Shown here: positions 41,147-41,291 of the stretch, one piece after another
How positions within the stretch are numbered: the first letter of the stretch is position 1
How the letters are laid out: every line of letters begins with the position of its first letter
Source: Aquabacterium sp. A3
Lineage (GTDB): Bacteria; Pseudomonadota; Gammaproteobacteria; Burkholderiales; Burkholderiaceae_C
Direction of reading: 5' to 3'
Assembly (NCBI RefSeq): GCF_038069945.1
Contig: NZ_JBBPEV010000002.1
Span: forward strand, 1 to 64,000
DNA length: 64,000 bases
Notes under the pieces: generated by a model
Databases searched by the model: none
What the model was told of the DNA's origin: nothing
The model's input: the letters and a program-made list of their open reading frames with translations, nothing else
Made by a program: the position numbers and the translations under genes

Positions 41147-41173
41147 CCCCACCTGGGGCATCCCGCCTATAAT
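41147..41173 (+). promoter_or_regulatory. Promoter of the hemB-hemJ intergenic small RNA
   Basis: A perfect TATAAT (41168-41173) lies 7 bases before the first base of the small RNA's first stem. No -35 match is present at 16-18 bases. Instead, a palindrome CCCCACCTGGGG (41147-41158) overlaps the spacer and -35 region, suggesting a regulator-controlled promoter. Confidence 0.6.
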
Positions 41174-41180
41174 CGATCCT

Positions 41181-41291
41181 GAATGATACGCCGCAAGGCC
41201 TCATTCCCTGCTTTTCCTCCCTGAGCAGGTGCCTTACGTGATGACAGCGTCAAGGCTTGCAGGCCCCGGCGTATGCCGGGGCTCTTTTTTT
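41181..41291 (+). ncRNA. Candidate trans-acting small RNA with CCUCCC loop
   Basis: About 111 bases fold into four consecutive hairpins with almost no linker. Stem 1 is GAATGA/TCATTC (41181-41206), enclosing GCC-GCAA-GGC with a GNRA tetraloop. Stem 2 is CCTGCT/AGCAGG (41207-41229), with loop TTTCCTCCCTG. Stem 3 is GCCTTACG/CGT-C-AAGGC (41231-41256). The terminator is GCCCCGGC-GTAT-GCCGGGGC plus a T run. The first stem begins exactly where the TATAAT box predicts the start site. The CCUCCC loop is complementary to Shine-Dalgarno sequences, a feature of sRNAs that block translation. No ORF fits inside. It does not resemble 6S, SRP, tmRNA or RNase P RNA. Direct evidence is structural only. Confidence 0.72.
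41263..41291 (+). terminator. Intrinsic terminator of the small RNA
   Basis: A perfect 8-bp GC-rich stem (GCCCCGGC/GCCGGGGC) with a GTAT loop is followed by TC and seven T. It lies 19 bases before the hemJ ATG, so hemJ either has a separate start within that gap or depends on read-through. Confidence 0.92.

What the first reader, a model, noticed from the sequence alone, without database searches (positions are those of the whole stretch)
41147..41291. Unannotated four-hairpin small RNA between hemB and hemJ
Four abutting stem-loops start exactly at the base predicted by a perfect TATAAT and end in a strong intrinsic terminator. The second loop presents CCUCCC, which can pair with Shine-Dalgarno sequences, and the promoter has a palindrome in place of a -35 box, suggesting an activated, condition-specific promoter. 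The flanking genes are both in haem synthesis, so haem- or metal-linked control is a plausible context. I do not recognise it as a known family.
Basis: partly seen in the sequence, partly recalled or inferred. Interest (0 to 1): 0.75.

Follow-up and report, generated by a model that had tools for sequence, protein, structure and literature searches.

The report
Known anti-hemB small RNA
The four-hairpin RNA is a real regulatory RNA that is already catalogued in Burkholderia relatives as anti-hemB; the less expected part is that plasmids, transfer elements and phages also carry copies of its conserved loop.

Summary
In detail: a perfect TATAAT, four abutting stem-loops and a strong terminator lie between hemB and hemJ. 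The RNA is not unknown. It is Rfam RF02837 "anti-hemB" (60.5 bits, cut-off 49.5), over cut-off in 95 of 120 genomes drawn from the family; the B. cenocepacia RNA of that name is ncS04, 105 nt. Covariation is strong and includes the 5' hairpin, which the Rfam model leaves out. The second loop, GCUUUUCCUCCCUGAGC, is nearly invariant, so Shine-Dalgarno occlusion is the likely mechanism; this is inferred, no target is shown. The promoter reading fails: among 38 window-type loci the palindrome is in the window alone, and 32 have an extended -10; ncS04 did not respond to low iron. Pairing of the loop with hemB is at chance level. New here: related copies on mobile DNA. The window's own genome has a second, weaker copy beside conjugation genes, two named plasmids carry one, and of 15 IMG/VR contigs found with the loop, 14 have pairing arms and 5 pass the RF02837 cut-off.

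The parts
41168..41173 (+). -10 box TATAAT of the sRNA promoter
   Evidence: read; CTATAAT kept in 8 of 8 closest named loci; 32 of 38 window-type loci have TGNTANNNT, the window does not
41147..41158 (.). palindrome CCCCACCTGGGG in the -35 area; not conserved
41180..41291 (+). predicted sRNA transcript (anti-hemB), about 112 nt
   Evidence: TATAAT plus 7 nt to the T run; ncS04 in B. cenocepacia is 105 nt
41181..41206 (+). hairpin 1 (5' hairpin), outside the Rfam model except its last two bases
   Evidence: 9 pairs in two helices, 7 of them with changes on both sides in A1, 98.2-99.6% of cells paired
41207..41229 (+). hairpin 2, seed hairpin presenting UUUUCCUCCC in its loop
   Evidence: 17-nt core identical in 70 of 86 hem-linked loci
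41231..41256 (+). hairpin 3
   Evidence: 4 of 9 pairs with changes on both sides, but one pair of the window's fold fails in 27 of 38 loci
41262..41291 (+). intrinsic terminator with T run
   Evidence: 6 of 9 pairs with changes on both sides
41205..41290 (+). match to Rfam RF02837 anti-hemB, model 1-81 of 81, 60.5 bits
40048..41058 (-). hemB, 5-aminolaevulinate dehydratase, divergent neighbour
   Evidence: ORF; Pfam ALAD, E 1.3e-137
41310..41756 (+). hemJ-type protein, downstream neighbour

Best explanation
The element is the chromosomal copy of the anti-hemB small RNA (RF02837; ncS04 in B. cenocepacia, probably the Hfq-purified Bc7) in a bacterium of the genus Aquabacterium or next to it. It is transcribed from its own promoter and ends at an intrinsic terminator. 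It most likely acts in trans: Hfq-assisted pairing of the exposed loop UUUUCCUCCCUGAG with GGGAGG-type Shine-Dalgarno sequences blocks translation of a set of mRNAs. Shown here: membership, conserved synteny, covariation, near-invariant seed. Reported elsewhere: the ncS04 transcript, and its Hfq binding. Inferred: SD occlusion. Unknown: the targets and the signal.
For: RF02837 hit over the cut-off; 95 of 120 family genomes over cut-off; 76 of 111 loci examined have hemB on the upstream side in the minus sense and hemJ downstream in the plus sense; 17 of 34 pairs with double changes against 7.4 +/- 1.7 in shuffles; loop core identical in 70 of 86 hem-linked loci; ncS04 transcript, northern blot and the statement that Hfq binding was shown for it (passages of PMC5688073); the betaproteobacterial sRNA S17 is described as repressing through sites that should disrupt ribosome binding (passages of PMC11722255).
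Against: No target is shown. A search for TCAGGGAGGA 2-12 nt upstream of ATG in 120 genomes matched 55 genomes, many by the antisense of the RNA itself. In the DNA that I read (8 listed non-self places were not fetched) 61 non-self sites remain, 38 with an ORF of 60 aa or more; one protein type recurs in three genomes, another in two. There are no RNA data for this organism. ncS04 was not significantly regulated in any of seven conditions, so no signal is known.
Confidence: 0.8

Rival explanations
1. It is mainly a cis element: a 5' leader or attenuator of hemJ that ends early at the terminator, with read-through giving hemJ mRNA.
For: It lies directly upstream of hemJ in the same sense; the T run ends about 18 nt before the hemJ ATG, and 76 of 111 loci keep the arrangement.
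Against: The distance from the model start to hemJ ranges from 89 to 1114 nt (median 139, 76 loci); 25 of 111 loci have neither gene within the fetched DNA; copies occur beside conjugation or plasmid genes and on phage contigs; the loop, not the terminator, is the nearly invariant part.
Confidence: 0.1
2. It is an antisense RNA to the hemB 5' leader, as the Rfam name suggests.
For: hemB lies on the other strand upstream in 83 of 111 loci; hemB was predicted as target of Bc7 (passage of PMC6321483).
Against: The sRNA does not overlap the hemB ORF (model start 147 nt away here); seed pairing to hemB -80..+60 is -8.8 kcal/mol, reached by 33% of shuffles. The hemB start site is unknown, so overlap with the leader is not excluded.
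Confidence: 0.08
3. It is a haem- or metal-responsive sRNA with an activator-dependent promoter.
For: Gene neighbourhood; no -35 box at the usual spacing in the window, and the window and its same-genus locus L057 are among the 6 of 38 loci without the TG of an extended -10.
Against: Palindrome in the window only, of 38 window-type loci, and in 0 of the 8 closest named loci; 32 of 38 have TGNTANNNT; 40 of 47 of the other group have TTG-N3-15..18-TANNNT. ncS04 without significant change in low iron.
Confidence: 0.05

Closest known systems
Rfam RF02837 anti-hemB / B. cenocepacia ncS04 (probably Bc7)
   Same: sequence and structure model over cut-off, site beside hemB, CCUCCC loop, terminator; length about 112 against 105 nt for ncS04
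   Different: the Rfam model begins at hairpin 2; hairpin 1 is shown here to covary, with different sequences in two groups of relatives
RF02278 betaproteobacterial toxic small RNA (double-hairpin RNAs, bdhR1) and Bordetella S17
   Same: betaproteobacterial sRNAs with CU-rich unpaired stretches predicted to cover ribosome binding sites
   Different: no RF02278 hit in the window over cut-off or at the RNA up to E 10; the best RF02278 match in the genome is elsewhere and below cut-off (29.1 against 50)
alpha-r14 / cuckoo RNAs (NfeR1)
   Same: stems differ while an anti-SD loop motif is ultraconserved; translation initiation regions are targeted (passages)
   Different: alpha-r14 has three hairpins with CCUCCUCCC; here one loop with CCUCCC
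RF00519 suhB/mmgR
   Same: weak match, CCUCCC in its consensus
   Different: 23.2 bits, cut-off 41

Membership tests
RF02837 anti-hemB | covariance model score at or above 49.5 bits | tested here: met
   60.5 bits, model 1-81, not truncated
RF02837 anti-hemB | location beside hemB | tested here: met
   relatives
RF02837 anti-hemB | same fold kept by compensatory changes in relatives | tested here: met
   17 of 34 pairs with double changes; 0 of 500 shuffles as high; slid structures 29-52% paired against 94.4%
RF02837 anti-hemB | expressed small transcript that binds Hfq | not testable with these tools
   reported for ncS04 only (passages)
RF02278 toxic small RNA | covariance model score at or above 50 bits | tested here: not met
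   no hit in the window over cut-off; 29.1 bits elsewhere in the genome
alpha-r14 / cuckoo | three hairpins each with CCUCCUCCC | tested here: not met
   one loop with CCUCCC; definition from passages
RF00519 suhB/mmgR | covariance model score at or above 41 bits | tested here: not met
   23.2 bits

The most novel reading that the evidence does not exclude
The anti-hemB seed hairpin is a transferable RNA module: phages, plasmids and conjugative elements of Burkholderiales have repeatedly taken it up, in the host's four-hairpin form or inside phage-specific folds, and use it to act on host mRNAs of the anti-hemB regulon. In one phage contig it sits between a Cro/CI-type regulator gene and replication genes; on the Comamonas plasmid pZM22-2 it sits beside an abortive-infection gene.
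Probability: 0.4. Interest if true: 0.7.

Novelty: new member of a known kind. Interest (0 to 1): 0.4.

Why it matters
anti-hemB is widely conserved in its family, and I found no validated target for it in the papers seen. The near-invariant loop, and its repeated presence on phage, plasmid and transfer elements, suggest that the loop itself is what is selected, and they give natural variants (same loop, different scaffold) with which the regulon could be found. If mobile elements use it, this would be RNA-level mimicry of a host regulator.

Tried and rejected
Palindrome as regulator site: not supported. hemB or hemJ as seed target: chance level, -8.8 and -6.2 kcal/mol, 33% and 75% of shuffles as good. 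Own-genome target scans: AGGGAGGA-N2-12-ATG gave one site besides the RNA's own antisense; CTCAGGGAG-N4-14-ATG three listed places besides self, two of them one site, with 3 for the reversed control; GGGAGG-N3-13-ATG 133 against 44 for the reversed pattern, which ordinary SD sequences can explain. Family scan: no strongly recurrent target. Plasmid records: blastn with the window RNA found one, Ideonella dechloratans; with the genome's second copy none; two further queries added a short match in Comamonas resistens (E 0.8 and 0.7), which cmscan then showed to be a full-length RF02837 match below cut-off (44.3 bits); the other rows are short or weak. Phage records: only a 33-nt match to the terminator part. 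Of 17 wide regions around copies that are not beside hemB/hemJ, proteins of 13 were scanned and 6 show conjugation, plasmid, recombinase or IS genes; the rest are not shown to be mobile, and 4 of the 6 copies score below the Rfam cut-off. Literature: 'anti-hemB' gave 3 papers, one of them about an antibody; 'RF02837' gave none; two searches aimed at phage- or element-borne sRNAs gave nothing on this that I saw in the listings; a find in a 2024 review gave no hit for hemB, ncS04 or Bc7.

Full report
What is there. The gap between hemB (minus strand, ATG 41058; Pfam ALAD) and hemJ (plus strand, ATG 41310; Pfam UPF0093) holds TATAAT at 41168-41173, four abutting hairpins and an intrinsic terminator whose T run ends at 41291. 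The 113-nt fold has z -4.3, and none of 200 shuffles is as stable.

What it is. cmscan places it in Rfam RF02837, anti-hemB, at 60.5 bits against a cut-off of 49.5, model 1-81 complete. RF00519 reaches 23.2 bits, far below its cut-off. In B. cenocepacia ncS04 is listed with the alternative name anti-hemB: 105 nt, MFE -52.7, z -5.5 (table passage of PMC5688073; its Rfam column is empty there, so the link to RF02837 is by name). [quoted passage not shown] Khoo 2012 lists Anti-hemB as a known Rfam homologue in Burkholderia (passage of PMC3521395). The 51-nt core of the window occurs exactly in 8 stretches of the named genome collection; 3 of the 8 are named Aquabacterium. One of these, L144, holds the same DNA as L057, a locus of the genome G033 that is classed in the window's genus, so the window is probably Aquabacterium.

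Distribution and place. 95 of 120 genomes drawn from the family have a match over cut-off and 101 of 120 at E <= 0.001; 3 of 14 control genomes match at that E, none over cut-off. In a draw from the class, 10 of 185 are over cut-off and 74 of 185 at E <= 1e-4, against 1 of 14 control genomes; these weaker matches were not followed up. I examined 111 loci: the window's, the 30 best loci and 80 further places, two of them in the own genome. Four places over cut-off (G008, G040, G083, G048) and most of those below it were not fetched. 76 of 111 have hemB and hemJ on the expected sides, 7 hemB only, 3 hemJ only, 25 neither in about 1.5 kb on each side. hemJ begins 89 to 1114 nt after the model start, median 139.

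Covariation. 38 hem-linked loci of the window type, the window among them (alignment A1), keep the window's structure in 94.4% of 1285 cells. 17 of 34 pairs show changes on both sides (shuffles 7.4 +/- 1.7) and 49 cells are doubly changed (11.6 +/- 2.9); no shuffle of 500 reaches either value. Structures slid by 1-3 columns pair in 29-52%. The structure comes from one of the sequences, and shuffles ignore relatedness, so these figures lean towards it. Hairpin 1, absent from the Rfam model, has 7 of 9 pairs with double changes. Hairpin 2 never varies in this group. One pair of hairpin 3 fails in 27 of 38 loci, and the outermost terminator pair in 13. The 47 other hem-linked loci (A2) mostly have a different 5' hairpin with its own covariation (7 of 7 predicted pairs), and in 44 of 47 a C-G pair in hairpin 2 where A1 has U-A; the consensus fold of A2 finds hairpins 1 and 2 only. 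The split into A1 and A2 was made by a motif, and a few A2 rows (L085, L103) resemble A1 in hairpin 2. L052, cut by its contig end, was left out.

Seed. GCTTTTCCTCCCTGAGC is identical in 70 of 86 hem-linked loci and 16 of 25 others; in all 108 loci where the loop could be parsed the arms extend by at least three pairs, while 3 of 111 could not be parsed. In the window it occurs once even with three mismatches allowed.

Promoter. The palindrome (CCCC-N3-5-GGGG) is found in 1 of 38 window-type loci, the window itself, and in 0 of the 8 closest named loci, all 8 of which keep CTATAAT. 32 of 38 have TGNTANNNT, an extended -10; the window and L057 are among the 6 without it. 4 of 38 have a TTG at -35 spacing; in the other group 40 of 47 have TTG-N3-15..18-TANNNT. 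An activator is therefore not needed to explain the missing -35 box, though it is not excluded for this genus.

Mechanism. The loop can pair with GGGAGG-type SD sequences. RNAs with CU-rich loops are described in the same way: double-hairpin RNAs and S17, which directly represses a sigma-54 activator gene (passages of PMC11722255); alpha-r14 NfeR1 silences ntrB through its anti-SD loops (passages of PMC10746234). No target was found here: hemB and hemJ pair no better than shuffled sequence. In the family scan, 55 of 120 genomes matched TCAGGGAGGA-N2-12-ATG, many through the RNA's own antisense; among 38 ORFs behind non-self sites one protein type (an ABC-2-like permease by recall) recurs in three genomes and one in two at 98.8% identity.

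Copies on mobile DNA. The own genome has a second RF02837 match below cut-off (46 bits, C5:38515-38608) beside TraI_2, a TraD/TrwB-type coupling protein, TraL, TraE, TraK and TrbI. Other copies lie beside TrfA, KfrA, large serine recombinases or an IS110 transposase: in all 6 of 13 loci whose neighbours were scanned. Two named plasmids hold full-length matches below cut-off: Ideonella dechloratans unnamed1 (709 kb; 44.4 bits), next to a toluene monooxygenase operon and about 2 kb from an IS3 transposase, and Comamonas resistens pZM22-2 (36.6 kb; 44.3 bits), between an abortive-infection family gene and a metallophosphoesterase gene. In IMG/VR the exact 17-mer loop is in 12 contigs, a single altered 17-mer in none (one control only), and two patterns with arms bring the total to 15 contigs. 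In 14 of 15 the arms extend by at least two pairs; L272 has none, lies in an ORF and is probably chance. Some contigs are near-duplicates at this place (L154/L158, L155/L157, L268/L270). Of the 15, 5 (L159, L268, L269, L270, L274) pass the RF02837 cut-off, 3 score lower (L156 48.6, L271 30.9, L152 30.7 bits) and 7 gave no match at the thresholds used. L153-L155, L157, L158, L271 and L273 hold the hairpin inside a much longer stem, L152 inside a shorter one (minimum-energy folds; L156 folds otherwise in one of the frames tried). Phage genes were found on the contigs tested: terminase, portal and RecT in L157, terminase in L159, integrase in L156 and L273, tail sheath in L270, portal in L274, primase or helicase in L271 and L152; L153-L155, L158 and L272 were not tested. 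In L157 the hairpin lies between a Cro/CI-type HTH gene and a replication initiation gene, where short ORFs also overlap it. The held DNA of the 15 contains no hemB or hemJ. L268 and L270 carry a groEL gene beside the RNA (L268, L270) and L269 showed only a regulator, so host flank is possible there.

Verdict. The window feature is ordinary: a conserved copy of a catalogued sRNA without a validated target in the papers I saw. The 5' hairpin and the mobile and phage copies add something; I found no description of the latter, but the literature searches were few.

Noticed in passing
L132 9916-10009 (own genome C5:38515-38608): second anti-hemB-like RNA (46 bits, below cut-off) in the same genome, among conjugation genes (TraI_2, TraD/TrwB type, TraL, TraE, TraK, TrbI) and an H-NS gene
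   Followed up: partly
L161 6002-6076 (Comamonas resistens pZM22-2) and L160 8000-8086 (Ideonella dechloratans unnamed1): full-length RF02837 matches of 44.3 and 44.4 bits, below cut-off, on named plasmids; the first lies between an abortive-infection family gene and a metallophosphoesterase gene
   Followed up: partly
L159 5670-5739; L274 2937-3005; L268 4508-4601; L270 12333-12426; L269 1828-1912: RF02837 RNAs over cut-off on viral contigs of IMG/VR
   Followed up: partly
L157 4468-4488 and L153, L154, L155, L158: the same seed hairpin inside a long-stem RNA, in L157 between a Cro/CI-type HTH gene and a replication initiation gene
   Followed up: partly
L271 1445-1636 and L273 6611-6802: RT-15 RNA (RF03018) overlapping the start of a reverse transcriptase frame on contigs that also carry the seed hairpin; L273 also has a tmRNA fragment (33.9 bits, below cut-off) and an integrase, which suggests integration at ssrA
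   Followed up: no
window 41298-41310: CATAAT ends 6 nt before the hemJ ATG, with no Shine-Dalgarno sequence seen by eye; a similar CATAAT-CCCCC-ATG is in L146, L147 and L151: hemJ may be leaderless
   Followed up: no
window 41106-41130: inverted repeat AAAAACC/GGTTTTT between the hemB start and the sRNA promoter; A-rich and T-rich flanks recur in related loci (by eye), possibly a terminator or attenuator in the hemB leader
   Followed up: no
class-wide search: 74 of 185 genomes of the class have a match at E <= 1e-4 but only 10 pass the cut-off, so the family may be wider than the Rfam cut-off suggests; G289 has four matches in a row on one contig
   Followed up: no
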